DNA of 64,000 nucleotides from Murinocardiopsis flavida (GTDB lineage Bacteria > Actinomycetota > Actinomycetes > Streptosporangiales > Streptosporangiaceae): positions 1-64,000 of the forward strand of contig NZ_PYGA01000008.1 of the NCBI RefSeq assembly GCF_003014485.1, written 5' to 3'. The position numbers and the translations under genes are program-made. Shown piece by piece: positions 9,473 through 29,880 of this stretch (position 1 is its first letter; every line of letters begins with the position of its first letter). The notes below the pieces were generated by a model. It saw only the letters and a program-made list of their open reading frames with translations, was not told the origin of the DNA and ran no database searches.

Positions 9473-9532
9473 ATGCGTCGCAGGGACGCGGTCGCCCGCG
9501 ATGGGCGTGCTCGGGTGTTGATGGAGGCGTAA
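9473..9532 (+). CDS. Candidate 19-aa leader ORF coupled to the TcpC-like gene
   Basis: The frame begins ATG CGT CGC AGG GAC and ends TAATG, sharing its last base with the ATG of the next gene. The peptide is Arg-rich (MRRRDAVARDGRARVLMEA). A gatgggg stretch upstream is a weak ribosome site. It could provide translational coupling rather than a functional peptide. The rest of 9242-9472 holds only short inverted repeats (for example actgtcc 9266-9272 with ggacagt 9284-9290). Confidence 0.3.
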   Translation: MRRRDAVARDGRARVLMEA

Positions 9533-10512
9533 TGGCTCGCAAGTCGACCGCGCGGCGCGGCGGTGTCTCGGATGAGGCGACCACCGCACCGGAGGCGGCC
9601 GATCACCACGAGGCCGAACCGGTGGGCCCCCGACCCCGGCGACAGCCCCGCTCCGGAGCGGGCGGACGGTGGTGGGTGTGGCTCGGCCGCGCCGTGCTCT
9701 GGGCGTTCATCATCGTGGTGCTGTTCAACGGCATATGGCTGCCGTTCCGGTCGTCCTTCGCCGAGCCGTCCGCCGGGGGCCCCGCTCCCGCCGACAAGCC
9801 GGAGTTCCCCGAGACCGCCGCGGCGGCGTTCGCGCTGCGGTTCGGCGAGGCCTACCTGAATCCCAAGGAGGGCCAGAAGCGCGACGAAGCCCTCGCGCAG
9901 TTCCTGCCCGAGGGCCGAGGCTCCAGCCTCGACCTCGCCGGAACCGGCCTGACCGGCAAGAACATCGAGGTGTTCGGTGTCGACGCCAAGGACGCCAACA
10001 ACGCCGTCGTCACCCTCAGCGCCGACGTCAACAGCAAGCCCATGAGCCTCGACGTCCCGGTCTACGCCGCGGACGGCGGCGGCTCCCTCGTCCTCTCGGG
10101 CGAGCCGGCGCTGCTCGCGGCGCCCGCAAAGGCCGAACTCCCCGACGGCGAGGACATGCGCACCGACGCCGATGCGCGCGCCACGCTGGAGCCGTTCCTC
10201 GAAGGGTTCTTCGAGGCGTACGCCCAGACCCCCGAGCACCTCGGCCGCTACTTCGCAGAGGGCGCGCAGATCGCCTCCCTCCCCAAGGACGCAGTGCGCT
10301 TCGGCGAGCTGCGCGACGTCGTCGTCCCCGAGGCGCCCGCCTCCGGCGACGACGTCCGCGAGGTCCGCGCCACCGTGGTCTGGACCCTGCCCGGCGACAA
10401 TGGGGCCGCCCCCGCCCAGCTCACCCAGAGCTACCTGGTGACCGTCGAGCAGACGGGCGGCGACTGGTCGGTGCGCGACCTTCGAGGGGCCCCCAACTCG
10501 TTCGGCACATGA
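9532..10512 (+). CDS. Conjugal transfer protein TcpC-like (VirB8-like), membrane anchored
   Basis: The 326-aa product has a disordered cytoplasmic N-terminus of about 45 residues, one membrane helix (GRAVLWAFIIVVLFNGIW) and an extracytoplasmic region of two NTF2-like domains (about 85-200 and 215-326). This is the layout of TcpC/VirB8 scaffold proteins of Gram-positive type IV secretion systems. ggagg sits 4-8 nt before the ATG. It is the first large gene of the T4SS-like operon and precedes a TcpD-like and a TcpE-like gene, the same order as in the tcp locus of pCW3 (known), which supports the call. Expected role: structural scaffold of the membrane channel. Confidence 0.8.
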   Translation: MARKSTARRGGVSDEATTAPEAADHHEAEPVGPRPRRQPRSGAGGRWWVWLGRAVLWAFIIVVLFNGIWLPFRSSFAEPSAGGPAPADKPEFPETAAAAFALRFGEAYLNPKEGQKRDEALAQFLPEGRGSSLDLAGTGLTGKNIEVFGVDAKDANNAVVTLSADVNSKPMSLDVPVYAADGGGSLVLSGEPALLAAPAKAELPDGEDMRTDADARATLEPFLEGFFEAYAQTPEHLGRYFAEGAQIASLPKDAVRFGELRDVVVPEAPASGDDVREVRATVVWTLPGDNGAAPAQLTQSYLVTVEQTGGDWSVRDLRGAPNSFGT

Positions 10513-10603: not shown

Positions 10604-10900
10604 ATGCTCCCCCTGCTGAACGACGCCGCCGACGCCGCCACCGCGGTCGTCCTCGCCACATCGGAGGACGCCCCCAACACGGAGGGCCTCGCCGAATGGC
10701 TGCGGGGCTTCTTCGGCCCGCTGTTCCTGGTGATCGTCTCGATCGTCGCGATCTTCTTCCTGTTCACCAGGGAGATCACCAGGTTCGCGCAGTTCATCAT
10801 CCTGGCGATCTTCATCGGGATCGTGTTCTACGTGCCCGGCATCATCGAGACCATCGCCGTCGCCATCGCCCGTGCGATGGGTGTGGAGACCCCCGAGTAG
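10604..10900 (+). CDS. TcpD-like small membrane protein
   Basis: The 98-aa product has an extracytoplasmic-looking acidic N-terminus of about 35 residues, then two hydrophobic helices (FFGPLFLVIVSIVAIFFLF and FAQFIILAIFIGIVFYVPGI) separated by a short basic loop TREITR. This size and topology fit the TcpD family of Gram-positive conjugation channels, and the position between TcpC- and TcpE-like genes fits too. The stop is followed by a 36-nt gap containing the strong aggagg site of the next gene. Confidence 0.7.
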   Translation: MLPLLNDAADAATAVVLATSEDAPNTEGLAEWLRGFFGPLFLVIVSIVAIFFLFTREITRFAQFIILAIFIGIVFYVPGIIETIAVAIARAMGVETPE

Positions 10901-10936
10901 CGCGAACCGAGTGCCGAGTTAGGAGGGTCGTACAGC

Positions 10937-13900
10937 GTGGACCTGCCCACGTACACCAAGATCTGGCGTATCGAGAAGCGGCTGTACAAGCTGTACGACT
11001 TCCGGCTGCCCATGCCGCTGCCCCTCGTCACGTTCAGCGTGTGGCTGGGCGTGACCGTGGTGTGGATGCTCCTCATGAGCCTGCTCGGGGTGCCTTTCGC
11101 GACACCGTGGCACGTCCTGTGGATCGTCCCGCCCATGGTCATCGCGTTCTTCGCGACCCGGCCCGTCGTCGAGGGCAAGCGGCTCACCGAACTCGTCTTC
11201 TCCCAGGGCCGCTACCTCGCCGAGGCCCGCGTCTACACGCGCCTCACACCCGAACGCGAACCCCGGGTGATCCTCGTGGGCGTCCGGGTGTGGCACCGCG
11301 ACCCCGCGGCGGGGCCGCTGCCGCTCACCGCCACCGCGCAGAAGCAGCAGTCCCGCGCGGCGAAGGCCGCCGACCGCGAGCGCAAGCGCGCCCTGCGTCC
11401 GGCGAAGGCGCGCACGGCACTCGCGTCCCCGCCCTCGGCGCCGGAACCCGCACCCACCCGTTCCGCACCGGCCCGGTCCGAACGCGACACCGACCGGCCC
11501 GGCCTGCGGGCGGCGCCCCGCGCGGCGCTCAATTACCTCGGTTTCGGCCTGCCCAAGACCGCCAAGCAGTCCACACCCGCATCGGGCACCCCCGCCGCCG
11601 AACGCCGGGAGCTCGGTACGGCCAAGCGCCGCGAGCACGCGCCCAGCAGGCTGAGCTGGGGGCCCGAGCGCGAGCACGCGCGCGGCGGCAACGGCGCCGA
11701 GGCCGGGGCCGCGCGCGGCACCGAGACCGCCGAGGACGCCGACACCGGCAGCGGGGAGTGGCTGACCTCCCTGCGGACCTCCTCCGGCGAGACCCCGTGG
11801 CCCCTGGCGTCCAAGCACTCCCACGAGCACTCCCACGAGCACGCGGCCGCCGCTCCGCCCGCAGTCGAGAGCAAGGCCGCGCGGCGCCGCGCCGAGGAGA
11901 TCATGGCGGCCCCCGACCCCGAGGCGGCGGGGTGGCGCGTGGGGGAGCGTGCGCCGACCGCGGAGCAGGAGCGGGTCGAGCACCGGCGCGCACTGGAGCA
12001 GGCGGCCGACACCGGAGCCCCCGAGGCGGCGCGGGAGGCGGCCCCGGACCCCGGCGCGGCCGAGGGCAGTAAGCGGCTGCGCGGCCGGTCGCAGGGCCGC
12101 GAGGTCGCCCGCCGGCTCGAACACGAACGCGAGGCGGTCCGCCACGAAGCCCCGCCGCCCCCGGCGAAGGCCCAGGGCCGGGGCGCTCCGGCGACCGAGG
12201 GCGACCCGCACGCCCGGTCGGCCGCGCCGCGCCGCCGCCCGCACGCCGCGCCCTGGAACCTGCCTGCGGCGGGGCCCGCCGCCGCACAATCCGGCGCGGT
12301 CGACACCGGCGCCGACGAGGCGGTCGCGGCACGGCCGGCCGGCGGCAGCGGACACGACGACCCCGAGATCACCGCGGCGTCGTTCGCAGCGGAGTCCCTG
12401 GCCTACGTCGACGGCCCGGCCGCCGCCGAGCCCACGGAGCCTGCGGGCGCAGCGGAGTCCAAGGGGACAGAGGAGCCCAAGGGGGCCGAGGAGGCCGCTG
12501 AGGGGGCTGCCGAGGAGGCCAAGGAGCCAGAGAGGGCCGGGGAGCCCGCGGAGACCGCCAGGGCCGGGGACGCCGAGGGGCCCGAGGGGATCGGGGAGTC
12601 CGAGAGGGCCGAGGAGTCCAAGGGAGGGGAGCCAAAGGGAGCCGAAGGGGCCGAAGGGGCCGCGCCCGCAGTGCCTACGGCCGAACACCACCCCGACGAC
12701 GCGAAACCGGCACTCGAACTCGACCACGGCACTGGTGAGCACGAGAGCTTCAGCGACTCCGGCGGCCCCGACTCCCCGGTGGTCCGGCGGCCGACTTTGG
12801 CCGAGATCGAGGCCGCCGAGCAGGCCGCGTTCGCCGCCCGCCGTCCCCGGGCCGCCCGCCCGGGACAGCCCGGGGTAGAGGAGCCCGCATCGGACGCTGC
12901 GGCGGCCGGTGCAGTGGCCGCCGCGTCGGCCCACGAGGCTGCTGCGGTGCCGAACGCCGCCGAGGTGCCGGGTGACCGCGGTGACGGCCCCGCCGCGCCC
13001 CAGGAGGCGGCTGAGAGCCGCACAGTGCCCACCGCCGACGCTCCGGTTCGGCCCGCCGCCGATGACAGCGAGACGGCCGCCGACAGCGAAGCGGCCCCGC
13101 CCGTCCCGGCAGCGGCGGAGGGCGAGGACGCACTCGGCGACGCCGCGACGACGGAGCCGGAGCAGGCCGCGGCAGAGCCGACAGAGGCGACCGCGGAAAC
13201 GGGCACGGAGCCGAGCGCAGAGTCGGGCACCGACACAGGTGGCGACCTCCTCGCGGCCCCTGCCGCCGACCCGGACGGTGCGGCGGATGCGGCGCAGGCG
13301 TTGGACGCCGAGGCGGCCGACCCCGGCGCGGAGGACGCCGACGAGTCGGCGGCGTCCGGTCCCGCCGCTCCCGAGGTGGCCGCGCCGATCGCCCCCGCCG
13401 CCTCCACTGCCGCCGCGCCGATCGTGCCCGCTGTCCCCGCCGTCGCCGCGCCGATCGCCCCCGCTGTCCCGGCGCCCCCCGACCCGGTCGTCCCCGCTGC
13501 TGCCACCGAGCAGCCCGACGCGGCCGGCGCCGCCGATGGCACGTCCGACGACGCGCCCGCCGCCCCCGCGGCCGCCGCGGACGTCGATACGCAGCCCCAC
13601 CCCGCTCCCACCGGGCCGCCGCGTTCGAACCGGCTGTCGCGGAGCATGCGGTCCAACGGGCCCGCCACACCGGGCGAGCCGGCGAAGGCCAAGCGCGCGC
13701 CGACCCACGCCGAACGTCCCGGCGGCGCCCCCGCGCCGAAGCGCGACACCGCCCCGCCGTCCCGGCCCGTGCGGCGCACCCGGCCGGTCGAGGTCGAGGC
13801 GGGCGACGACAGCGTCTTCACCCGGGTTGCGCAGAACGCGCGGCGCCTCGGGCAGTTGTTCACCCCGGCGGGCGGGGTGCCCGCGCCGAAGGACGACACC

Positions 13901-14965
13901 GAGAAGCCCGCCCCGGCCGCAAAGCCCGACCTGCAACTCGACCACGGCACCGGCGAGCACGACGCCCTCACGGCGACCCCGGAGCGGCGGCCCGACCGCC
14001 CGGCGCGGGCCGCGACGCCAGCCCCGGCCCGCCCCGTTCCGGAGCCGGCCGACGAGCCCGCCGCGCCCCCCGACAGCGGGGCCACCCGCGGCTGGCGCCG
14101 CCTCGCCCGTGTGGTCACCGGCGGCAACGCGTCCGCCGCCGCCAAGACGGACGTCCCCGAAGCCGACATCCGGCGGCTGCGCACCGAGTTCACCGGAACG
14201 CGCCGGATCATCGTGCTGGGCTGCACAGGCGGAGCGGGGCAGAGCATGACAGCGCTGATGCTCGGCCACACCCTCGCCGCCCACCGCGACCAGCGGGTCG
14301 TCGCCGTCGACGTCAACCCCGGCGGCGCCGGGCTGTCGCGGCGCATCCGCACCGAGACGACCGAGACTCTCACCTCGCTGTTCGCCAACGCCGAGCGCAT
14401 CCAGGGGTACGCGGGGATGCGCGGGTACACGTCGCAGTCGCCCAGCGGGCTCGAAGTGGTCACCACCCTGGACGATCCGTACGTGCAGACCCTCGACGAC
14501 CGCGACTACGTGGGGCTCGCGCAGCTGCTGGAGCGGCACTACGAGATCACCCTGCTCGACCCGGCGGCGCCCGGTGTCGCCCGGGCGCTGCCCATCGCCG
14601 ACGCGCTCGTCCTCGTGGCCCCCGCGAACGCCGACGCGGCGCGGGCGGTCGCCATGACCTTCGAGTGGCTCGACGGGCACGGGTACGCGAACCTGCGGGC
14701 GAAGTCCGTTGTCGTGGTGAACGGGGTGAGCCGCCGCAGCCTCGCCGACGTCGACGCGGCGGAGCAGGTCGCCCGGGGCCGCTGCCGGGCGATCGCCCGG
14801 GTGCCGTGGGACGACCACCTCGCATCGGCGCGCGCGGTGATCGACGTCAGCGCGCTGCGCCCCACCACCCGCCGGGCCCATGCCGCCCTCGGCGGGGTAC
14901 TGGCCGGCGGATTCGCGGCAGGCCCGACCCCGGGAACCCGGGTGACATCGGAGGCCCGCCGATGA
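10937..14965 (+). CDS. TcpE-like membrane domain fused to a MinD/ParA-like ATPase by a ~950-aa disordered linker
   Basis: This 1342-aa protein is a three-part fusion. Residues 1-125 are a TcpE-like domain with two membrane helices (PLVTFSVWLGVTVVWMLLMS and PWHVLWIVPPMVIAFFA) and a basic cytoplasmic follow-on. About 126-1075 is low-complexity Ala/Glu/Pro-rich sequence with EPKGAEEA-like and API(V/A)PAVPA repeats. From about 1085 a SIMIBI-class ATPase domain appears: RIIVLGCTGGAGQSMTALML, VVAVDVNPGGAGLSRRI, ITLLDPAAPGVAR, LVLVAPANADAARAV. The P-loop reads TGGAGQS, so both lysines of the deviant Walker A motif (KGGxGKT) are absent; nucleotide hydrolysis is doubtful. GTG start with aggagg 11 nt upstream. 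A KPxLxLDHGTGEH motif occurs twice in the linker (near 12703 and 13921). It probably links the channel base to a cytoplasmic regulatory domain (inference). Confidence 0.8.
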   Translation: MDLPTYTKIWRIEKRLYKLYDFRLPMPLPLVTFSVWLGVTVVWMLLMSLLGVPFATPWHVLWIVPPMVIAFFATRPVVEGKRLTELVFSQGRYLAEARVYTRLTPEREPRVILVGVRVWHRDPAAGPLPLTATAQKQQSRAAKAADRERKRALRPAKARTALASPPSAPEPAPTRSAPARSERDTDRPGLRAAPRAALNYLGFGLPKTAKQSTPASGTPAAERRELGTAKRREHAPSRLSWGPEREHARGGNGAEAGAARGTETAEDADTGSGEWLTSLRTSSGETPWPLASKHSHEHSHEHAAAAPPAVESKAARRRAEEIMAAPDPEAAGWRVGERAPTAEQERVEHRRALEQAADTGAPEAAREAAPDPGAAEGSKRLRGRSQGREVARRLEHEREAVRHEAPPPPAKAQGRGAPATEGDPHARSAAPRRRPHAAPWNLPAAGPAAAQSGAVDTGADEAVAARPAGGSGHDDPEITAASFAAESLAYVDGPAAAEPTEPAGAAESKGTEEPKGAEEAAEGAAEEAKEPERAGEPAETARAGDAEGPEGIGESERAEESKGGEPKGAEGAEGAAPAVPTAEHHPDDAKPALELDHGTGEHESFSDSGGPDSPVVRRPTLAEIEAAEQAAFAARRPRAARPGQPGVEEPASDAAAAGAVAAASAHEAAAVPNAAEVPGDRGDGPAAPQEAAESRTVPTADAPVRPAADDSETAADSEAAPPVPAAAEGEDALGDAATTEPEQAAAEPTEATAETGTEPSAESGTDTGGDLLAAPAADPDGAADAAQALDAEAADPGAEDADESAASGPAAPEVAAPIAPAASTAAAPIVPAVPAVAAPIAPAVPAPPDPVVPAAATEQPDAAGAADGTSDDAPAAPAAAADVDTQPHPAPTGPPRSNRLSRSMRSNGPATPGEPAKAKRAPTHAERPGGAPAPKRDTAPPSRPVRRTRPVEVEAGDDSVFTRVAQNARRLGQLFTPAGGVPAPKDDTEKPAPAAKPDLQLDHGTGEHDALTATPERRPDRPARAATPAPARPVPEPADEPAAPPDSGATRGWRRLARVVTGGNASAAAKTDVPEADIRRLRTEFTGTRRIIVLGCTGGAGQSMTALMLGHTLAAHRDQRVVAVDVNPGGAGLSRRIRTETTETLTSLFANAERIQGYAGMRGYTSQSPSGLEVVTTLDDPYVQTLDDRDYVGLAQLLERHYEITLLDPAAPGVARALPIADALVLVAPANADAARAVAMTFEWLDGHGYANLRAKSVVVVNGVSRRSLADVDAAEQVARGRCRAIARVPWDDHLASARAVIDVSALRPTTRRAHAALGGVLAGGFAAGPTPGTRVTSEARR

Positions 14966-15048
14966 CCCGGCGCACCCGGACCCGTCCGCCGCCGACCACC
15001 GTCACGACGCACGCCACAACGACGCTCCAGCCGGAGGACACCCAATGA
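14962..15048 (+). CDS. Candidate 28-aa coupled mini-ORF between the fusion ATPase and VirB4 genes
   Basis: Both ends overlap neighbours as ATGA: its ATG shares bases with the previous stop, and its TGA overlaps the ATG of the next gene. It has its own ggagg at 14950 with a 7-nt spacer, and the next gene has ggagg at 15033, inside this frame. The peptide is basic then Thr/Pro-rich (MTRRTRTRPPPTTVTTHATT, ending LQPEDTQ). The exact stop-start coupling on both sides argues that it is translated. Whether the peptide itself matters is unknown. Confidence 0.5.
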   Translation: MTRRTRTRPPPTTVTTHATTTLQPEDTQ

Positions 15049-17717
15049 ACGGCACCACGGGGGCGAGCCGCCTCGCGGTCCGCTACTTCGACGACCGCGT
15101 CCTGCTCAGCGACACCGAAGCGTGGGCGTACTTCCGGCTGCCCACCATCAACTACGAGTTCTCCACGCCCGAGGACCGCGAGACCCTCGCCACCAACATC
15201 ACCATCGCGCTCGCCGCGATCAGGATGAACGACGCCGAAGTGCACCTGCGCGTCGCGCACCGCACCTACCCTGCCGCGGCGTGGGCGACCAAGCTCGACG
15301 ACACCTCCGACTCCGGGCCGGGCTGGTACGACTACCTCGACGAGATGTACCGCCATGTGTGGGCGAAGGACTTCTGGTCGAAGGAGATCTACCTGGGGGT
15401 GCGGCTGGGGCAGAGGGGGGTTCGCGCGCAGCTCACCGGCGGCGTCTTCGCCCAGCTCTTCACCGCCTACCAGCGCACAGAGCAGATCCTCGGCCTTGAG
15501 GACGACGCGATCGACCCCAAGGAGATCTCCCGCTGGACCGAGCAGGCCGAACGCCTCGGCCGCGCGCTCGCGGCGAGCGCGCTGCACGCCCGGCACGCGT
15601 CATCGACCCAGCTCGCTTGGCTCATCCGGCACGCGGTCACCGGCGCCATCGAGGAACCCCGCCGCTCCGCTGCGGGGCGGCGAACCTGGGGCAAGGGCGA
15701 GATCGAAGGGCTGGTCGAGGGCACCGTCCACAACGGTCGCTCGCTGCTGCGCCTGGAGCAGCCCGGCGGCGACAACTACGTCGCCTACCTGTCGTTCTCG
15801 CGGTTCCCCGACCTCATGCCGTTCCCCGACGGCGAGCCCTGGCTGCACTACGCCGACGCGCTCCCGTTCCCCGTCGAGGTGTCCCTGCGCATGAAGCTGG
15901 TGCCGCCCGCCAAGGCCAGCAAGGACGTCGGACGCAAGCTCGCGCACGCCCGCGACATGGACGCGCACATCCGCGAGGCCGGGGTGGAGGCCCCGCTGGA
16001 CCTCGCCGAGCAGATCGACGCGGCCCGGCTGCTGGAGCACGGCATCACCAAGGAGCGGCTGCCGTTCGTGTACGGCTGGCACCGGCTCATGGTGTCGGCG
16101 CACACCGAGGAGCTGCTCGTGCAGCGGGTCGAAGCGGTCGTGGAGCACTACCGCGACATCGGCATCGACATCGTCAACTCCACCGGCGACCAGTTCTCCC
16201 TGTTCTGCGAGTCGCTGCCCGGCGACCGCATCCGCCTCAACGCCTACGTGCAGCGCCAACCGCTGCGCACCATCGCCGGCGGCATGCCCGTCGCAACGGT
16301 CGACCTGGGCGACCGCAGCGACTCCTCCGCATCGGGGTGGATCGGCCCCTACATCGGCGAGACCCTGGGGCGGGCGCGGTCCATCGTCCACTTCGACCCG
16401 ATGGTGGCGGCCGCCCGCAACCGGCCCACCGCCATCGCCATCACCGGCGAACCCGGCGGCGGGAAGACAACGCTGGCGCTGCTGCTCATCTACCAGCTCG
16501 CGCTGCGCGGGGTGACCGTCGCAGCCATCGACCCCAAGGGCGACGCCGAATCCCTGGTGCGGCTGCTGCAACGGCGCGGCCGCAAGGCGCGCATCATGTC
16601 CATGGCGTCGGCCGAACCGGGCCTCCTCGACCCGTTCGCGTTCGGCGACGACCTCGCCACCAAGAAGACCATGGCGACCGAAACCCTGCGGCTGCTCCTG
16701 CCCCGCATGAGCGAGGAACGCGAATCCGCCATGATCCAGGCGGTGGCGGCCGTCGCCAACCAGCCGCGGCCCAGCCTCGACAAGGTCGTCGCCTACCTGG
16801 AGTCGTCGCACGACCCGGCGTCCAGGAACCTGGGGGCCGTGCTGCGGTCCATGTCGGAGATGCGGCTCGCCGGGCTGTGCTTCGACCCCCAAGGCGAAGC
16901 GCAGATCGACACCGAGAGCTGGACCACGGTGTTCACCCTCGGCGGGCTGACCCTGCCCGACTCCACCATCCAGCGCGAGGACTACAGCTACGAGCAGCGG
17001 CTCAGTGTGGCGCTGCTGTACCTGGTCAGCCAGTTCGCCCGGCGGCTGATGAACGGCCTCGACCGGCACCTGCCCAAGGCCATCTTCCTCGACGAGGCGT
17101 GGGCCATCACCTCCACACCGGAAGGCGCGAAACTCGTCCCGGAGGTGTCGCGCATGGGGCGCTCGCGCAACACCGCGCTGATCCTCGTCAGCCAGAACGC
17201 CGGCGACCTGCTGAACGAGCAGGTCACCAACTGCCTGTCGAGCGTGTTCGCGTTCCGGTCGTCGGAGCGGGTCGAGGTCGACAGCGTGATGGCACTCCTC
17301 GGCGTCGAGGCGTCCGAAGAGCACGGGGCGGCGCTGCGCAACCTCGGCAACGGCGAGTGCATCTTCCGCGACCTCGACGGCAGGGCCGGCCGGATCGCGG
17401 TGGACCTCGTCTCCGAAGAACTCCTGGCCTGGCTCGACACCAACCCCACACGGCAGCGTCCCGACGACGCCGAGCACGGCGACCACGGCGGGCACCGCGA
17501 CCACGCGGACGACGACCCGCACGGAGGCGACCCGCACGGAGGCGACCCGCACGGAGGCGTCCCACCGGAAGCGTCCGGCGGCGCACTGGTGGGGACCGGA
17601 AGCGGCGGCGGCGCCGCATCCAGACCGGCCGGCTCGGGCGGTGCCCCAGCAGGGGGGCGCCGAACCGCCCGCGAACCGCACGACACCCGGGGACCAGGTC
17701 AGGAGCTGCACGGATGA
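15045..17717 (+). CDS. VirB4-like conjugation ATPase
   Basis: Hexameric motor ATPase of type IV secretion-like systems. The 890-aa product has an N-terminal domain of about 460 residues and a FtsK/HerA-type motor core: Walker A GEPGGGKTTLALLL (about residue 470), AAIDPKGDAESLV, Walker B KAIFLDEAWAI (about 678) and the sensor-like ALILVSQNAGDLLNEQ. The C-terminal 100 residues are disordered and rich in His, Asp and Gly, with three perfect 15-bp repeats encoding DPHGG. The ATG overlaps the mini-ORF stop, and the stop overlaps the next start (ATGA), so translation is coupled. It resembles the ATP/GTP-binding protein of the Streptomyces cmdABCDEF cluster (from memory). Confidence 0.88.
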   Translation: MNGTTGASRLAVRYFDDRVLLSDTEAWAYFRLPTINYEFSTPEDRETLATNITIALAAIRMNDAEVHLRVAHRTYPAAAWATKLDDTSDSGPGWYDYLDEMYRHVWAKDFWSKEIYLGVRLGQRGVRAQLTGGVFAQLFTAYQRTEQILGLEDDAIDPKEISRWTEQAERLGRALAASALHARHASSTQLAWLIRHAVTGAIEEPRRSAAGRRTWGKGEIEGLVEGTVHNGRSLLRLEQPGGDNYVAYLSFSRFPDLMPFPDGEPWLHYADALPFPVEVSLRMKLVPPAKASKDVGRKLAHARDMDAHIREAGVEAPLDLAEQIDAARLLEHGITKERLPFVYGWHRLMVSAHTEELLVQRVEAVVEHYRDIGIDIVNSTGDQFSLFCESLPGDRIRLNAYVQRQPLRTIAGGMPVATVDLGDRSDSSASGWIGPYIGETLGRARSIVHFDPMVAAARNRPTAIAITGEPGGGKTTLALLLIYQLALRGVTVAAIDPKGDAESLVRLLQRRGRKARIMSMASAEPGLLDPFAFGDDLATKKTMATETLRLLLPRMSEERESAMIQAVAAVANQPRPSLDKVVAYLESSHDPASRNLGAVLRSMSEMRLAGLCFDPQGEAQIDTESWTTVFTLGGLTLPDSTIQREDYSYEQRLSVALLYLVSQFARRLMNGLDRHLPKAIFLDEAWAITSTPEGAKLVPEVSRMGRSRNTALILVSQNAGDLLNEQVTNCLSSVFAFRSSERVEVDSVMALLGVEASEEHGAALRNLGNGECIFRDLDGRAGRIAVDLVSEELLAWLDTNPTRQRPDDAEHGDHGGHRDHADDDPHGGDPHGGDPHGGVPPEASGGALVGTGSGGGAASRPAGSGGAPAGGRRTAREPHDTRGPGQELHG
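17514..17558 (+). repeat. Three perfect 15-bp in-frame repeats (DPHGG)
   Basis: The unit gacccgcacggaggc is repeated three times inside the VirB4 tail, each copy encoding Asp-Pro-His-Gly-Gly. The flanking codons continue the His/Asp-rich pattern. Confidence 0.9.
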
Positions 17718-20149
17718 CCAGACACCGACTGGCCGACACCGTTGAGTCCCCTGAGCGGCCTGAGCCGCCTGAGCCACCGGCCCCGCCCCCGCGGCGGCCG
17801 AACACCCTGTCCCGGCGCCTGCGGCGCGGGGTGCTCCTCGCGGTGATGATGCTGGGCTTCCTGCTCGTCCCGATGGGATCCAGCTACGCGGCCACCGTCC
17901 CCGGCTGCGAGGGCGAACCGGCACCCCTCCCCGAGGCTGCGGGCAGCGGCGCCGACGGGCTGCTGGTGCCACCGCAGTCGGCCGCCTCGACCGCGGCATC
18001 GCCCGACAACCTGCCGCCCGATTCGAGCCTTTACGGGCAGTACGGGACCTCCGGGCAGCAATGGCACGTCATCCGGGAGTCGTGCGTCGACAAGCTGGGA
18101 ACAAGCGCCGTAGCGACCCTGAGCAACACGGCGTGGGACCTCTCGAAGACCATCAACCAGTCGACCATCACGGTCTACCAGGCGGCGACGTCCGACGGGC
18201 TCCTCGACAATTTCAACCGCCTCGTCGAGAACGTGATCAACGAGCTCCGCGGGGGGATCTGGCAGCCACTCCTGCCGACGGTGGTCATCCTCGGCGCGAT
18301 CTGGCTCGGCTGGTTCGGCCTGGTCCGAAAGCGCGTCACCCTCACGGTCGAAAGCTCCGTGTGGATGGTGCTCGCCATGACGCTCGGCATCTGGATCCTC
18401 GTCAATCCCGGGCAGATCCTCGGCTACGCGAGCACTGCTGTGAATTCCGGTGGCCAACTGGTCAATTCCGCCGTCTCGAAGATCTCCGTCCCGGGTGTTT
18501 CGGACAACTGCCCGACCGGGGCTCCCGGGATCGAGAAGGCGGCGTGGGAGAGCGACAGCGAGTTCGCCGTCAGGAAGAACTCCCAGATGCTGTGGTCCGG
18601 GCTCGTGTGCCGACCGTGGATGGCAGGGGAGTTCGGGACCGGCCCCGTGGCCGACATCGCCGCCGAGCAGCACGGCGTCGCCCTGCTGGGTGCCCAGGGC
18701 GTGAGCAGGGTGGAACTCCAAGAGGTCGCGGACGGCGACGTCGACTCGGAGGACCTGTACAAGCAGAAGCAGGACGACTACGAAGAGATCGCGGCCGACA
18801 TCGAGAACACCTATCCAGAGGTCTATCCGCTGTTCGACGGATCGCAGCAGGGGAGCCGGCTGGGCGTCGCCACGCTCGCCCTCTTCGCCTCGGTGTTCGC
18901 GGGCGGGCTGATCCTGGCGGGGGCGGTCGCTCTGATCGTTCTCAAGATCGGTTTCCTGCTGCTGCTGCTCCTGTCGCCCATATTCCTGCTGATCGGCATC
19001 CATCCGGGGTATGGGCGGACGGTGCTCCTGCGGTGGCTGGAGATGATGATCGGCCTGCTGCTCAAGCAGATCTTCGTCGTCCTCCTCATCTCCCTCTTGG
19101 TGATGTGCTACGGGCTCGTCATGGCGTCCGGTCTCGGCTGGGGGCTGCAAATGATCCTGCTGGCGCTCTTCACCGTTGCGTTGTTCATCTACCGGAAGCC
19201 GTTCGCTCACCTCTTCGCGTCCGTGAATGCGAACACCTTCACGTCGCGCATGGTCAATGACGCTATGACCAGCAATGTTCTCGGGAAGAGCGCAAACGTG
19301 CTGCCCCCGGTCGCGTATATGCGCGCGCAGCGCTGGGGGCTGCGGCGCGCCCCGCAGCTCGCGACAGCGGCCGGTGGAGTGCCCGCCGGCGGTGGTGGAG
19401 TCGACCCCGGTGAAACTGCGCCGGGGATGTCGGGAGCGGCCGCGCCCGACACCGGCGAGCACGAGGGCGCATCGGTCCGGGGCGAGACGGGCCGGGTGCG
19501 CGGCAGGGCGGGCTACGGCCCGGTGCAGTCGAAGACCGCGCCGCCGCCGTTGCGACTCGGGCAGGCGGCGTCGGCCGCCCCGGAGCGGCCGCAAGGCGCC
19601 CCGACCCCGCGCAGTTCCGCGCAGGCGCCACGGCTCGGCGAGTCGATGGCGGCGAGTGGTGGACTCGGCGGCCGGTCCGCTGCCGCCCCGGCCCGGGGAG
19701 CGATACCGCCGCGGCCTGCTGGGGGGTACACCGGCGTGGGGGACACCGGGTGGTCGTCGGTGTTCGGGGCCACGGGCCGCGGCCCGCAACCCGCATCGGG
19801 CGGGGGCGGCAATTCCTCCGGGGGCGGTCCTGCCGACGAATCGCGGCCCGCGCCGAGTACCGGCCGGGGCATCTTCAATGGGCGGTCGGAGACGCCACCG
19901 CAGGGGAACACCATCCCGAAGGGCTCCCGATGGGGCGGCGCACCTCAGCGCCGCGACAGGCCCGCACCTCCGCCGCGCGCACCCCGACCCGCGCCGACAG
20001 GCCGCATGGAGAAGGCGGGGAACTGGTTCAAATCCGAAGGCGGCAGCCGCAAGGACCAGCCGATGAGCCCCTTCTGGACCGAGAACGGCGGCCAGCAGCG
20101 CCGGAACGGCAGGCGCGACATCCCATTCTGGCTCAGAGACGAGGACTGA
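17714..20149 (+). CDS. VirB6/TrbL-like polytopic membrane protein
   Basis: The 811-aa product has a cytoplasmic N-terminus, a first helix or signal (GVLLAVMMLGFLLVPMG), an extracytoplasmic segment of about 130 residues with paired cysteines, two helices (LPTVVILGAIWLGWFGL, VWMVLAMTLGIWILVNP), a loop of about 160 residues, then a cluster of four helices (GVATLALFASVFAGGLILAG to LLALFTVALFIYR). A Pro/Gly/Arg-rich disordered tail of about 260 residues follows. This is the topology of VirB6/TrbL channel subunits in Gram-positive systems. The ATG overlaps the VirB4 stop and follows aggag. The tail contains TGEHE, also present in the linker motif of the fusion ATPase. Role: inner membrane channel (inference). 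Confidence 0.78.
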   Translation: MTRHRLADTVESPERPEPPEPPAPPPRRPNTLSRRLRRGVLLAVMMLGFLLVPMGSSYAATVPGCEGEPAPLPEAAGSGADGLLVPPQSAASTAASPDNLPPDSSLYGQYGTSGQQWHVIRESCVDKLGTSAVATLSNTAWDLSKTINQSTITVYQAATSDGLLDNFNRLVENVINELRGGIWQPLLPTVVILGAIWLGWFGLVRKRVTLTVESSVWMVLAMTLGIWILVNPGQILGYASTAVNSGGQLVNSAVSKISVPGVSDNCPTGAPGIEKAAWESDSEFAVRKNSQMLWSGLVCRPWMAGEFGTGPVADIAAEQHGVALLGAQGVSRVELQEVADGDVDSEDLYKQKQDDYEEIAADIENTYPEVYPLFDGSQQGSRLGVATLALFASVFAGGLILAGAVALIVLKIGFLLLLLLSPIFLLIGIHPGYGRTVLLRWLEMMIGLLLKQIFVVLLISLLVMCYGLVMASGLGWGLQMILLALFTVALFIYRKPFAHLFASVNANTFTSRMVNDAMTSNVLGKSANVLPPVAYMRAQRWGLRRAPQLATAAGGVPAGGGGVDPGETAPGMSGAAAPDTGEHEGASVRGETGRVRGRAGYGPVQSKTAPPPLRLGQAASAAPERPQGAPTPRSSAQAPRLGESMAASGGLGGRSAAAPARGAIPPRPAGGYTGVGDTGWSSVFGATGRGPQPASGGGGNSSGGGPADESRPAPSTGRGIFNGRSETPPQGNTIPKGSRWGGAPQRRDRPAPPPRAPRPAPTGRMEKAGNWFKSEGGSRKDQPMSPFWTENGGQQRRNGRRDIPFWLRDED

Positions 20150-20224: not shown

Positions 20225-20860
20225 ATGCCAAAACCCCTCTCGGATACGGCCCAGCGACTGGTGTTCGGCACACTGGTCGTGGCGCTGGTCGCCTTCGGTA
20301 TCTATCTGAGCCTTGGGGGATTCAACGGCGGCGGCCCGGGGGATGGTGCCGGCCAGGATCGCGAGTCGGCGGGAGGCGGCGCGGGCGCGGCGTCGCCGAG
20401 TCCGATTCCCACGGCCGACACCGAGGACATGAAGGTGCTCGATTGGTTGCCGTTCGAGGAATCCGAACTGAAGTCGGCGGCTGCCGTCGCCCAGGAATTC
20501 GCGTCAGCATACGGAACCATCGACTACCAGACACCGAAAGAGGACTACCAGTCGAAACTGGAGTCGCTTGCCGCCAAGGACTACGCCAAGACCCTCGCCA
20601 GGAGCTCGGGAGCATCGGCGCTCTGGGGGGAGAAGGCGAAGGAGAAGACCGTCTCCGAGGGCCGGGCGGACGTCCGGTCCATTCGCAGCTTCGACGACAA
20701 GTCGGTCGTCTTCGTCGTGAAAGCGCAGTCCATAAGTGCGAGCGAAAGTGGAGAGACCGAGGAACTCGGCGATTTCGCGGTGACCGTCATCGACGAGGGC
20801 GGCCAGTGGAAGGTCTACGACTTCCAACCCGCTGATGCGGCGAATCTGGGAGATGGCTGA
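20225..20860 (+). CDS. Membrane-anchored protein with NTF2/VirB8-like extracytoplasmic domain
   Basis: The 211-aa product has one N-terminal membrane helix (LVFGTLVVALVAFGIYLSL), a Gly/Ser-rich linker of about 40 residues, and a folded C-terminal domain from about residue 70 (LKSAAAVAQEFASAYGTIDY to WKVYDFQPA) with the alternating helix and strand pattern of NTF2-like VirB8 domains. It differs from the first TcpC-like gene in having a single such domain. The ribosome site is weak. It is part of the same operon; its TGA gives a TGATG overlap with a nine-codon frame ending 10 nt before the next gene. No exact family was recognised. GC falls in this gene compared with those upstream. Confidence 0.7.
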   Translation: MPKPLSDTAQRLVFGTLVVALVAFGIYLSLGGFNGGGPGDGAGQDRESAGGGAGAASPSPIPTADTEDMKVLDWLPFEESELKSAAAVAQEFASAYGTIDYQTPKEDYQSKLESLAAKDYAKTLARSSGASALWGEKAKEKTVSEGRADVRSIRSFDDKSVVFVVKAQSISASESGETEELGDFAVTVIDEGGQWKVYDFQPADAANLGDG

Positions 20861-20899: not shown

Positions 20900-22060
20900 A
20901 TGATCCGCCGCTTCGCACGCCCCGAACCATCCGATTCGGGCTCGTGTGCCACCCGGCTGGCCATCGCGGTAGGACTCTTCATGGTGGCAGTTGTCGCGTT
21001 GGCGGTACTGATCGTGCCGATGGCGTCGATGAACCAGGGGATCGGCTCGCTTGCGGCCGGCGGCTTGAAGTGCACCTCGGACGAAGCGGCCGAACAGGCC
21101 GACACCAGTGGGTACGCCGAGGACTCGATTCCCGAGAACTACCTCAAGATCTACCGGAAGGTCGGCAAGGACAAGGGCATCCCTTGGAACGTGCTCGCGG
21201 GAGTCGGCCAGGTCGAGAGCAAGCACGGCCGGTGGGACGGCCCGGGAATCACCGAAAAGCATAATGACTGGGGCGCAGCTGGGCCGATGCAGTTTGGCGT
21301 GAAAGACGGATACCCGGCCGGAAACAGTTGGGGCGGCGATCCCGTCATGCCCGTCGACAAGCGGCCGGAAAAAGGGTACGGGCAGGATGGTAACAAGGAT
21401 GGGGTCGTGGACGTATACGACCCCGAGGATGCCATTCCCGCCTCCGCTGACTATCTGATCGCCCATGGCGCAAAGGATGATATGCGCAAGGCGATATTCG
21501 GTTATAACCATGCATGGTGGTATGTCGACGACGTTCTCGGGTGGGCGAAGAAGTACGCTGATGGCGATTTCTCGACGGGTACATCGATCGAGGTCGCTGT
21601 GAACTGCGAGATCGATAGCCAGGGAGAGAGGATCGGGAAGGCTCCCGACGATGCGACCCAGGCCGTAGTCGATTGGGCTTTGGAGCAGCGAGGGAAGCCG
21701 TATATCTGGGGCGGAACCGGGCCATCGGGCTTTGACTGCTCGGGACTGCTGATGAAGGCGTATTCAAGCATCGGCGTGACGATTCCCAGGGTCTCCCAGG
21801 ACCAGTGGAATTTCGGACCACGGGTGAAGAAGGGCGACGAACAGCCAGGTGACCTGGTCTTCTTTGACGTGCAGAGGGCGGGTGAACCTCCCGGCCCCGG
21901 TCACGTCGGCATGGTCGTCGGCGACGGTCTGATGGTAGAGGCGTGGTGTACCGACTGCGGACCGATTGCCACACGGAAGTACGACGATCCGAGCCGGTCC
22001 GCCATCATGGGATTCACGCGCCCACTGGAGGATGAGAGCGCCAAGGCGAGTCTTGACTGA
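20900..22060 (+). CDS. Bifunctional cell-wall hydrolase: SLT transglycosylase plus NlpC/P60 peptidase (VirB1-like)
   Basis: Predicted to open peptidoglycan for the secretion-like machine. The 386-aa product has one N-terminal membrane anchor (LAIAVGLFMVAVVALAVLIV), a soluble lytic transglycosylase-like domain (about 75-225) with the catalytic Glu in GVGQVESKHG, and a C-terminal NlpC/P60 domain (about 255-380) with catalytic Cys in GFDCSGLLMKAY and His in PGHVGMVVGDG. Two-domain SLT-NlpC/P60 hydrolases are standard parts of Gram-positive T4SS (CwlT/TcpG/Orf14 type). The stop shares a base with the next start (TGATG at 22058). Codon use is less GC-biased than upstream genes. Confidence 0.88.
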   Translation: MIRRFARPEPSDSGSCATRLAIAVGLFMVAVVALAVLIVPMASMNQGIGSLAAGGLKCTSDEAAEQADTSGYAEDSIPENYLKIYRKVGKDKGIPWNVLAGVGQVESKHGRWDGPGITEKHNDWGAAGPMQFGVKDGYPAGNSWGGDPVMPVDKRPEKGYGQDGNKDGVVDVYDPEDAIPASADYLIAHGAKDDMRKAIFGYNHAWWYVDDVLGWAKKYADGDFSTGTSIEVAVNCEIDSQGERIGKAPDDATQAVVDWALEQRGKPYIWGGTGPSGFDCSGLLMKAYSSIGVTIPRVSQDQWNFGPRVKKGDEQPGDLVFFDVQRAGEPPGPGHVGMVVGDGLMVEAWCTDCGPIATRKYDDPSRSAIMGFTRPLEDESAKASLD

Positions 22061-22908: not shown

Positions 22909-24459
22909 CTAGGTGCAGTCGTGGTAGTCGAGGGAGAAGTCACCTCCAACTTCGAAGCAGAAGCTGACTGGGGGGTTTCCCAGTTCTCCTTCCTTGTAGG
23001 ATCCTCCGGTGAAAGTGATCAGCCCGGACTCTTCGGTCGTCGGGTAGATCAGATCGAAGTTCCTGGTAGGGGAAAATCCTTCGGCGGTGAGGGGTTCCGG
23101 GTTCGACGGTGGGATGTGACCCCCTCCAATCTTCCGCAGGGTCAACTGGTCGGAATTGATCTGTGGCGAGGCGCTCCAGAATGCAACCTCCGCGGAAAAA
23201 CGGAGGCCGTCGTTCAGTTCTTCGACGGACTTGACGGTCACCGTGTAACCCGTTCGCTCGCCGGAGTTCGCCTCGATAGTGGGCAAACCCTTTTTTAGCT
23301 GGACCCGGGAGTAGTCGGAACCGTTGACCGCCTCGGCAACCGCTTCCGGTGGCAGCGATCGCGACGGCTCGGGAGCCGTTGACGTCGACGCATTGCGGCC
23401 GACTCCGCTGTTGCCCCCATTCTCTTTCGACCAAGGGGCCGTTCCAAGGGCTGTTGGAACTCCCAGGCCGCCGGCTGTCAGCAACGCGGCTGCGACGGGT
23501 GCACCGACCATGAGGAGTCGACGGTGTCGCGGCGGCGCCGGAGGGGCGGGTGGACTCGTCGGGAGTCCGCGCCAGTGCCGATCGAGCAGTTCCGCGAGCA
23601 GGGCCCCGCTCGGTTCCGAGTCGGCGCGGTCACCGGACCACAGCCTGTGTACCATCGGCAACAGGGCGTCGATTGCCGGTCGCTCTGGGGGGTTCTTCGC
23701 CATCGCGGCGGCAATGACCGCTGCCAACTGCTCCGGCACGCCGAGGAGGTCCGGTGGGTCCTCTATCGTCCGAAACGCCAGCACATTCGCGGCACCGAAG
23801 CCGAACGGGTTGCGGCCCGTTGCAGCGAATGCGATGAGTCCGCCCAACGCGAAGACGTCGGAGCGGCTCGTTGCCGGATGCCCTTCGTACTGTTCGGGAC
23901 TGATCCAACCAGGCGTGCCGACTACGCCGCCGGTCGCGGTTAGCCCGGTGTCCTCCGCGGCGCGCGCGATTCCGAAGTCGAGAACCTTGGGCCCGTCCGC
24001 TGAGAGGATGACGTTGCCGGGTTTGAGGTCGCGATGCGCGATTCCGGCGTCATGGATATCGAGCAGAGCCTCCGCGACTCCGGCCGCCAGCGCCAATAGC
24101 AGTCCGGGCGGAAGCGGGCCCGCCTCTTGGACGTGCCGTTGCAGCGTGGAGCCTGCGACGAACTCGGTCGCCAGCCAGGGCGTCGCGCCGTCGGGATCCG
24201 CGGAGATGAAGCTCGGAACGCTGGTACTGCGCACGCGTTGCAGAAGGTGGACTTCGCGTGCGAATCGCGCGCGGAACCCCGGTTCGGCCACGTGTTCGCC
24301 GTGGATCATCTTCACCGCGATGTAGCCGCCGGCACTTCCTCTGGCGGCGTAGACGGTACCCATACCGCCCGCCCCGATCCGCCCGACGAGACGGTGTGGG
24401 CCGAGGCGCTTGGGGTCCTCCGGAGTGAGAGCGGCCATGCGCACACGATCGGCGGTCAT
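22909..24459 (-). CDS. Receptor-like serine/threonine protein kinase (first of a tandem pair)
   Basis: The 516-aa product has an N-terminal Hanks kinase domain (about 18-270): glycine loop GRIGAGGMGTVY, catalytic Lys in IAVKMIHGEH, HRDLKPGN, DFGIAR, activation-loop TPGWISPEQY, so it should be active. A Pro-rich juxtamembrane linker, one membrane helix (LLMVGAPVAAALLTAGGLGV) and an extracellular domain of about 160 residues follow, with two late cysteines (SFCFEVGG and DYHDC). No PASTA repeats. The ATG immediately follows the TAG of the upstream kinase gene with ggag 4 nt before it, so the two are co-translated. Its kinase domain is closely similar to the upstream paralogue, whereas the sensor is diverged. 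Confidence 0.9.
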   Translation of the reverse strand: MTADRVRMAALTPEDPKRLGPHRLVGRIGAGGMGTVYAARGSAGGYIAVKMIHGEHVAEPGFRARFAREVHLLQRVRSTSVPSFISADPDGATPWLATEFVAGSTLQRHVQEAGPLPPGLLLALAAGVAEALLDIHDAGIAHRDLKPGNVILSADGPKVLDFGIARAAEDTGLTATGGVVGTPGWISPEQYEGHPATSRSDVFALGGLIAFAATGRNPFGFGAANVLAFRTIEDPPDLLGVPEQLAAVIAAAMAKNPPERPAIDALLPMVHRLWSGDRADSEPSGALLAELLDRHWRGLPTSPPAPPAPPRHRRLLMVGAPVAAALLTAGGLGVPTALGTAPWSKENGGNSGVGRNASTSTAPEPSRSLPPEAVAEAVNGSDYSRVQLKKGLPTIEANSGERTGYTVTVKSVEELNDGLRFSAEVAFWSASPQINSDQLTLRKIGGGHIPPSNPEPLTAEGFSPTRNFDLIYPTTEESGLITFTGGSYKEGELGNPPVSFCFEVGGDFSLDYHDCT

Positions 24460-29577: not shown

Positions 29578-29880
29578 CCCGGGGCAGTACGGGGCCGTGG
29601 TAGTGACCGCGGCCGCGTTCCCGGTCGCCGGTACGCGCGGTGACCGCATCGTCGCGGCGGCGTTCGGCCGGTGGTCCGGTGCCCTCGCGCCGGAGCCGGG
29701 ACGCCGACCGCACCGGGGCCGGGCGCCGCCGTGGCCGCCCGGACGCCGGGCACCGCGGTCGCAATCCTTCGTACAGCGGTGTTCGCGGTCCCTCGGCCCG
29801 ACACCGCCCCGCGGCGACGCAGCCGTGGTCGTTCCGCACTGCCGCCCCTGTCGACCGGGAGCAGAAGGGGTAAGGGTCCT
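29578..29880. other. Gap without a supported gene
   Basis: The frame of the following TIR gene stays open here, but the sequence is Arg/Pro-rich and lacks the TIR fold. No repeat or hairpin of note was seen. Confidence 0.5.

What the first reader, a model, noticed from the sequence alone, without database searches (positions are those of the whole stretch)
10937..14965. Giant fusion of a TcpE-like membrane domain and a MinD/ParA-like ATPase with a lysine-less P-loop
Seen: a 1342-aa single frame with a two-helix membrane domain, about 950 residues of disordered Ala/Glu/Pro linker, and a SIMIBI-type ATPase domain whose P-loop is TGGAGQS, lacking both lysines. Known: TcpE and MinD/ParA proteins are normally separate. 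Inference: the ATPase-like domain may be a nucleotide-independent scaffold or a positioning factor tethered by a very long flexible arm to the secretion channel.
Basis: partly seen in the sequence, partly recalled or inferred. Interest (0 to 1): 0.7.

Follow-up and report, generated by a model that had tools for sequence, protein, structure and literature searches.

The report
Secretion-channel protein tethered to dead ATPase
A whole order of soil actinobacteria carries, fixed next to housekeeping genes on the chromosome, a conjugation-like secretion machine in which one channel subunit is fused by a long floppy arm to a ParA/MinD-type motor domain whose two catalytic lysines are always missing; this suggests that a moving ATPase was turned into a fixed docking part of the channel.

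Summary
The 1342-aa frame joins a TcpE (VirB3-like) membrane domain, a ~960-aa Ala/Pro/Glu linker and a ParA/MinD fold (AF2 pLDDT 92; best match Soj, Z 24). The same fusion, in one frame, is a single-copy chromosomal gene in 194 of 200 sampled genomes of the order (Streptosporangiales), beside ychF, rmuC and lytB, in a Tcp/MPF_FA-type T4SS operon with no relaxase or coupling-protein gene found. In 122 distinct ortholog domains the Walker-A lysine is always Gln and the signature lysine is never Lys; the loop VLGCTGGAGQ is the longest invariant run in the domain. Paralogs in the same genomes have KGGVGKT. Three Nocardiopsis plasmid records carry a close relative of this machine; in the two read, TcpE and an intact KGGVGKT ParA are separate genes of the same cluster. 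Best reading: a ParA-type partner of the T4SS was covalently tethered to the translocon and lost its catalytic lysines, leaving a pseudo-ATPase used for docking or positioning rather than cycling. Mg2+- and adenine-site residues remain, so nucleotide binding is not excluded. Linker length (163-1750 aa) is not conserved; short motifs in it are. Function is inferred, not shown.

The parts
10937..11290 (+). TcpE / VirB3-like N-terminal membrane domain, residues 1-118 (MDLPTYTxIWRIEKRLYKLYD...)
   Evidence: Pfam TcpE E 1e-20; invariant start and motif in orthologs; AF2 helices 27-50 and 59-79
11291..14158 (+). Low-complexity Ala/Pro/Glu/Arg/Gly linker, about 960 aa
   Evidence: Composition A25 P13 E10, only 5.8% ILMFWYC; orthologs 163-1750 aa
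12704..12760 (+). Linker motif copy 1: KPALELDHGTGEHESFSDS (residue 590)
   Evidence: KPxL[EQ]LDHGTGE[HQ] occurs 1-6 times in linkers of the window's subclade; LDHGT in 17 of 48 linkers, best shuffled 5-mer in 6
13922..13978 (+). Linker motif copy 2: KPDLQLDHGTGEHDALTAT (residue 996)
14090..14125 (+). Juxta-domain cationic/hydrophobic motif GWRRLARVVTGG (residues 1052-1063)
   Evidence: GWRRL in 29 of 48 linkers; a related [SG]GWR(R/K) motif stands before the domain in KGGVGKT paralogs
14195..14929 (+). ParA/MinD-fold domain (residues 1087-1331)
   Evidence: AF2 pLDDT 92.2, pTM 0.90; Soj Z 24.4, MinD Z 22.5, McdA Z 21.3
14219..14245 (+). Lysine-less P-loop G-C-T-G-G-A-G-Q-S (residues 1095-1103)
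   Evidence: 122 distinct ortholog domains, none with Lys at either position; invariant run VLGCTGGAGQ, 9 of 200000 shuffles reach a run of 10
9532..10512 (+). TcpC (VirB8-like), first gene of the operon
   Evidence: Pfam TpcC E 7e-13
10604..10900 (+). 98-aa small membrane protein in the TcpD position
   Evidence: Conserved in loci that reach it; near-identical core on Nocardiopsis plasmids; no TcpD profile match, so the name rests on position
15045..17717 (+). TcpF (VirB4-like) ATPase, intact Walker A TGEPGGGKTT
   Evidence: NCBIfam ATPase_TcpF E 9e-74, VirB4_CagE E 6.5e-18, both under their curated cut-offs; P-loop; about 72-91% identity across the order
17714..20149 (+). VirB6/TrbL-like polytopic membrane protein
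   Evidence: Pfam TrbL E 5e-8, NCBIfam CD3337_EF1877 E 2e-27; single match in 20 of 20 genomes searched
20225..20860 (+). 211-aa protein, possible second VirB8-like (NTF2) subunit
   Evidence: Ortholog in L172 matches Pfam TpcC only weakly, E 0.005
20900..22060 (+). NlpC/P60 peptidoglycan hydrolase (TcpG/VirB1-like)
   Evidence: Pfam NLPC_P60 E 3e-21

Best explanation
It is the VirB3-like (TcpE) subunit of a chromosomally fixed, conjugation-derived T4SS, permanently tethered to a ParA/MinD-type pseudo-ATPase. Shown: one frame, a conserved fusion, a ParA fold, both catalytic lysines always missing, and the operon context. Inferred: in the ancestral arrangement a separate, cycling ParA-type ATPase worked with the channel, as in two Nocardiopsis plasmid versions. 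In the chromosomal machine it was joined to the inner-membrane subunit that sits by VirB4/TcpF. Being covalently held there, it no longer needed an ATP cycle to come and go, so the lysines were lost while the fold and the loop stayed under purifying selection. The domain most likely acts as a docking module on a flexible arm that captures a substrate, a partner ATPase or a positional landmark and holds it at the entry of the channel, doing part of the work of the coupling protein that the locus lacks. Motifs in the arm (KPxLxLDHGTGE; GWRRLARVVTGG) are probable extra binding sites.
For: Fusion in frame in 19 of 20 first orthologs, the 20th cut by a contig end, in 28 of 32 further ones that hold both ends and in 57 of 59 named loci that hold both ends. 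TcpE profile single copy in 194 of 200 genomes and 44 of 45 genera of the order. Lysines absent in 122 of 122 distinct domains but present in 13 of 13 paralogs. Invariant run VLGCTGGAGQ. ParA fold. The Asp that is catalytic in MinD/McdA is Asn or another residue. TcpF P-loop intact. Two Nocardiopsis plasmids: separate TcpE (158-169 aa) and KGGVGKT ParA in one cluster with a TcpF of 73-77% identity. Literature: TcpE is the likely VirB3 (PMC12857230); VirC1 ParA coordinates DNA delivery to the T4SS and archaeal Ted loci carry a ParA gene (PMC9905601).
Against: No experiment; neither docking partner nor substrate is known. Mg2+-site and adenine-site residues are kept, which a pure scaffold would not need. 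The plasmid TcpF falls beside the Nocardiopsaceae chromosomal clade rather than outside all fused ones, so the plasmids may have taken the machine from a chromosome and re-acquired an active ParA; the order 'separate first, fused later' is then not shown by them. The rooting is weak because the outgroup is very distant.
Confidence: 0.5

Rival explanations
1. The domain is a nucleotide-binding sensor without hydrolysis: it binds ATP or ADP through the retained adenine and Mg2+ sites and opens or closes the channel according to energy state, as EspI is reported to do for ESX-1.
For: T/S29, D51, D134, N188 and P216 of the domain are kept. The paralogs share a disordered-looking N-terminal part, a GWRR-like motif and the ParA domain; EspI has long disordered regions, a P-loop NTPase domain and lowers ESX-1 secretion at low ATP (PMC11302016).
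Against: EspI's essential ATP-binding residue is Lys425 (PMC11302016), the kind of residue lost here. The relation of these paralogs to EspI was not tested by sequence.
Confidence: 0.2
2. The tethered domain is a receptor half-site: it forms a heterodimer with one of the cell's active KGGVGKT paralogs and so brings an active ParA to the channel.
For: ParA/MinD proteins dimerise across the P-loop face (general knowledge); three KGGVGKT paralogs are in the window's own genome; on two plasmids an active-looking ParA of this family is encoded with TcpE.
Against: One well-covered genome, G023 (98% complete), shows only the fused copy at E <= 1e-5. No complex was modelled.
Confidence: 0.14
3. The domain is still an ATPase: the Gln-containing loop supports hydrolysis in a different way.
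For: The loop is invariant rather than decaying, and Mg2+ and Walker-B residues remain. McdA works without the signature lysine (PMC6328274).
Against: McdA keeps the Walker-A lysine (alignment). Here both lysines and usually the catalytic Asp are absent.
Confidence: 0.08
4. The ATPase part is a vestige carried along without function.
For: Loss of both lysines.
Against: Domain identity of about 46-82% to the window over the order with 55 of 249 columns invariant in 43 sequences; a high-confidence fold; frame held over up to about 1750 linker codons.
Confidence: 0.05
5. Sequencing error, or two genes read as one.
For: Six orthologs (L064, L067, L077, L093, L115, L138) have a frame change inside the linker.
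Against: All other orthologs that hold both ends are in frame, with the same loop in independent assemblies; the four shifts examined keep linker-like sequence in the ATPase frame; no internal ribosome-binding site.
Confidence: 0.02

Closest known systems
TcpE / VirB3 subunit of Tcp (pCW3), Tn916 and ICEBs1-type (MPF_FA) T4SS
   Same: Pfam TcpE domain at the start; TcpC before it, VirB4/TcpF right after it, VirB6 and a peptidoglycan hydrolase in the operon
   Different: Known TcpE proteins end after the membrane domain (200-285-aa frames elsewhere in the phylum; 158-169 aa on two Nocardiopsis plasmids); here a linker and a ParA domain follow
ParA/MinD (deviant Walker A) ATPases: Soj, MinD, McdA, TadZ
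   Same: Whole-domain fold (Soj Z 24.4, MinD Z 22.5, McdA Z 21.3, 3fkq, which I take to be E. rectale TadZ, Z 19.2)
   Different: Both Walker-A lysines are missing; fused to a T4SS membrane subunit
EspI and EspI-like MinD/ParA proteins of actinobacteria
   Same: Long disordered part, a GWRR-like motif (in the paralogs read here), then a ParA domain (PMC11302016 for EspI's disorder and P-loop)
   Different: KGGVGKT is intact in the paralogs and Lys425 is essential in EspI; none is fused to a membrane domain
VirC1 of Agrobacterium and the ParA-like gene of archaeal Ted loci
   Same: A ParA/MinD protein working with, or encoded beside, a conjugation-type machine (PMC9905601, PMC10241942)
   Different: Separate proteins, not fused to a channel subunit
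Ced/Ted (archaea) and the Patescibacteria T4SS
   Same: Chromosomal T4SS kept by a whole clade, mostly without relaxase (PMC9905601, PMC12102498)
   Different: Other lineages and VirB4 classes; no VirB3-ParA fusion described in the passages read

Membership tests
TcpE family (PF12648) | Match over the curated cut-off | tested here: met
   74.5 bits against 29.9
TcpE family (PF12648) | Small protein with two TM helices beside virB4/tcpF | tested here: inconclusive
   Two TM-length helices and adjacency to tcpF are met; size is not, because of the fusion
ParA/MinD deviant Walker-A ATPases | ParA/MinD fold | tested here: met
ParA/MinD deviant Walker-A ATPases | Motif KGGxGK[ST] with signature and catalytic lysines | tested here: not met
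   T/A/S and Q at these positions in 122 distinct domains
ParA/MinD deviant Walker-A ATPases | ATP-dependent dimerisation and hydrolysis | not testable with these tools
   Needs protein
MPF_FA (Tcp-like) T4SS | TcpC/VirB8, TcpE/VirB3, TcpF/VirB4, VirB6 and a cell-wall hydrolase together | tested here: met
Conjugative element | Relaxase and coupling protein with the T4SS | tested here: not met
   None seen in the conserved cluster. PF03432, PF08751 and PF02486 have no match in the window's genome; PF12696 gives only two hits near its cut-off on other contigs. TcpA-type proteins and other relaxase families were not searched.
Conjugative element | Mobile, variable location | tested here: not met
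   Syntenic with ychF, rmuC and lytB across genera
EspI | ESX-1 locus linkage and sequence orthology | not tested
   No EspI sequence was compared; the resemblance is in architecture only
Ced/Ted domesticated DNA-transfer systems | VirB2-like pilin with VirB4 and VirB6 | tested here: inconclusive
   VirB4 and VirB6 met; the 98-aa protein was not tested as a pilin

The most novel reading that the evidence does not exclude
A domesticated conjugation machine kept by a whole order of mycelial actinobacteria, which moves DNA or protein between cells or hyphal compartments without relaxase or classical coupling protein, and in which a ParA positioning ATPase was captured by covalent fusion to the VirB3 subunit and converted into a fixed pseudo-ATPase receptor.
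Probability: 0.3. Interest if true: 0.82.

Novelty: new variant of a known kind. Interest (0 to 1): 0.62.

Why it matters
It would give a clean natural experiment on what the ATP cycle of a ParA/MinD protein is for: two plasmids encode it free and with lysines, the chromosomal machine has it tethered and always without. It also points to a conjugation-type T4SS fixed on the chromosome through nearly a whole order of antibiotic-producing actinobacteria, with no relaxase gene in its cluster; I found no description of it in the library searched. Such MOBless T4SS are suspected to be protein transporters (PMC3158045), and domestication of conjugation machinery for DNA transfer was stated in 2023 to be known only from archaea (PMC9905601).

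Tried and rejected
Sequence error or split gene: rejected. Antisense 1320-aa frame at 10919-14881 (-): a high-GC shadow frame with GC3 0.79 against 0.91 for the sense gene. Frame changes in six orthologs: the four examined keep linker-like sequence in the ATPase frame, so taken as assembly errors or slippage in repeats. ESX linkage of the paralogs: no ESX-like neighbours were evident from reading the ORFs of seven paralog loci, without profile searches. Missing VirB6 in Nocardiopsis: false alarm, the gene lies further away. TcpE model against PDB: no match at E <= 0.001. Direction of evolution from TcpF and ParA trees: not resolved. Papers on TadZ, EspI and VirC1 themselves were not held.
Full report
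What is there. Window 10937-14965 (+) encodes 1342 aa in one frame. Residues 5-102 match Pfam TcpE well over its cut-off. The C-terminal part matches CbiA/ParA, weakly on the full protein and over the cut-off when taken alone. Between them lie about 960 residues that are 25% Ala, 13% Pro and 10% Glu with under 6% large hydrophobic residues. The gene starts behind AGGAGG; no in-frame ATG/GTG near the ATPase part has a ribosome-binding site. In-frame GC3 is high throughout.

It is not an error. Using the ATPase part as probe, 36 of 41 genomes matched. Twenty syntenic loci were read: 19 have TcpE and ParA in one frame, and the 20th is cut by the contig end. Of 32 further loci holding both ends, 28 are fused in frame. 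Of 80 named GTDB loci (Nocardiopsis, Streptomonospora, Marinitenerispora, Actinomadura, Nonomuraea, Streptosporangium, Microbispora and others), 57 are fused, 2 have a frame change in the linker and 21 are cut by contig ends. Some species were sampled more than once. Across the order the TcpE profile hits 194 of 200 genomes and 44 of 45 genera, once per genome; three of the six misses are fragmented assemblies and three are one family. In a class-wide sample of 394 genomes all 40 hits are in the same family. Elsewhere in the phylum TcpE stands alone in frames of 200-285 aa.

The P-loop. In 122 distinct ortholog domains the Walker-A lysine is always Gln and the signature lysine is Thr (rarely Ala or Ser), never Lys. 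In an alignment of 46 fused domains and 13 paralogs the pattern is 46 without lysines against 13 with both. VLGCTGGAGQ is the longest invariant run in the domain; a run this long arises in 9 of 200000 column shuffles. The loop is therefore kept by selection, not drifting. The Asp that is catalytic in MinD/McdA is Asn in 41 of 46 and in all 13 paralogs; the Mg2+-site Thr/Ser, D51, D134, N188 and P216 of the domain are kept. That mapping rests on motif alignment, with the McdA alignment printed as a check.

Fold. AF2 with 43 sequences gives pLDDT 92.2 and pTM 0.90. The best structural matches are Soj (Z 24.4), FleN, MinD and ParA, with McdA and 3fkq (which I take to be E. rectale TadZ) lower. 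By sequence profile the nearest solved chains are VpsO and McdA. The TcpE part models with two TM helices at moderate confidence and has no PDB match.

The linker. Its length runs from 163 to 1750 aa, so it is a tether and not a ruler. Two conserved islands stand out: KPxL[EQ]LDHGTGE[HQ], 1-6 copies in the window's own subclade, and GWRRLARVVTGG just before the domain. The latter has a counterpart in KGGVGKT paralogs, which also have disordered-looking N-terminal parts, so linker plus ParA domain probably entered as one module. The paralogs recall EspI of ESX-1, a P-loop protein with disordered regions that lowers secretion at low ATP (PMC11302016); I did not test orthology.

The machine. The operon is TcpC (9532), a 98-aa membrane protein (10604), the fusion, TcpF/VirB4 with an intact P-loop (15045), VirB6-like (17714), a possible second VirB8-like protein (20225; weak) and NlpC/P60 (20900). 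Upstream lie ychF, rmuC, xseA and lytB, with conserved synteny across genera. No relaxase or coupling protein was seen in the conserved cluster. Three relaxase families have no match in the window's genome, and coupling-protein hits are patchy among relatives. TcpA-type coupling proteins resemble FtsK and were not searched, so a distant partner is not excluded. By current nomenclature TcpE is the likely VirB3, next to VirB4 (PMC12857230).

The unfused relative. Three Nocardiopsis plasmid records carry a TcpF of 74-78% identity. In the two that I read, TcpE is a separate 158-169-aa protein and a MinD/ParA protein with intact KGGVGKT is a separate gene of the same cluster, together with TcpC, the 90-95-aa protein, a VirB6-like protein and an SLT-type hydrolase. 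So TcpE and ParA are encoded together as parts of one machine, free in one version and fused in the other. The plasmid TcpF is nearer to the Nocardiopsaceae chromosomal clade than to the rest and the plasmid ParA groups with KGGVGKT paralogs. Either the plasmids keep the older, separate state, or they took the machine from a chromosome and gained an active ParA. The outgroup is too distant to decide.

Mechanism. Shown: fusion, fold, loss of lysines under constraint, operon and chromosomal fixation. Inferred: the domain does not cycle like ParA, because tethering to VirB3 by VirB4 makes a recruitment cycle unnecessary; it works as a docking or positioning module on an arm with extra binding motifs. 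Rivals are an energy sensor, a half-site for active paralogs and an unusual ATPase; a vestige is unlikely.

Known context. ParA-type proteins act with conjugation machines (VirC1; the Ted loci of archaea, PMC9905601). Clade-wide, mostly relaxase-free T4SS are known in Patescibacteria (PMC12102498), and MOBless T4SS are common (PMC3158045). I found no description of a VirB3-ParA fusion or of this order-wide machine in the library searched. I rate it a new variant of a known kind.

Noticed in passing
L190 (NZ_CP099838.1) and L191 (NZ_CP074136.1): Nocardiopsis plasmids carry a close relative of the machine with separate TcpE and KGGVGKT ParA genes; no relaxase or coupling protein was recognised by Pfam in the ten flanking proteins scanned, and PLSDB types them as non-mobilizable.
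   Followed up: yes
L110, L112 (about 10.9-12.9 kb): In Nocardiopsis-type chromosomes two genes (about 310 and 215 aa, found in 17 loci) are inserted between the fusion and tcpF, and VirB6 lies further downstream.
   Followed up: partly
window 20225-20860: 211-aa membrane protein whose ortholog weakly matches TcpC/VirB8 (E 0.005), perhaps a second VirB8-like subunit.
   Followed up: partly
window 12704-13978: Repeated linker motif KPxL[EQ]LDHGTGE[HQ], 1-6 copies in relatives, of unknown binding partner.
   Followed up: partly
window 22909-26328 (-) and 29671-31482 (+): Two Ser/Thr protein kinases and a TIR-domain protein lie downstream of the operon; no counterparts were found in the 20 compared loci.
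   Followed up: no
G000:C20 32425-35156 and G000:C3 66848-67633: Three EspI-like KGGVGKT ParA proteins with disordered-looking N-terminal parts in the window's own genome, two of them in tandem.
   Followed up: partly
L123 (NYMS01000058.1): A record titled Glycomyces fuscus carries a Nocardiopsis-like locus; its species name is probably wrong.
   Followed up: no
window 10919-14881 (-): A 1320-aa open frame on the opposite strand of the fusion gene, a high-GC shadow frame.
   Followed up: yes
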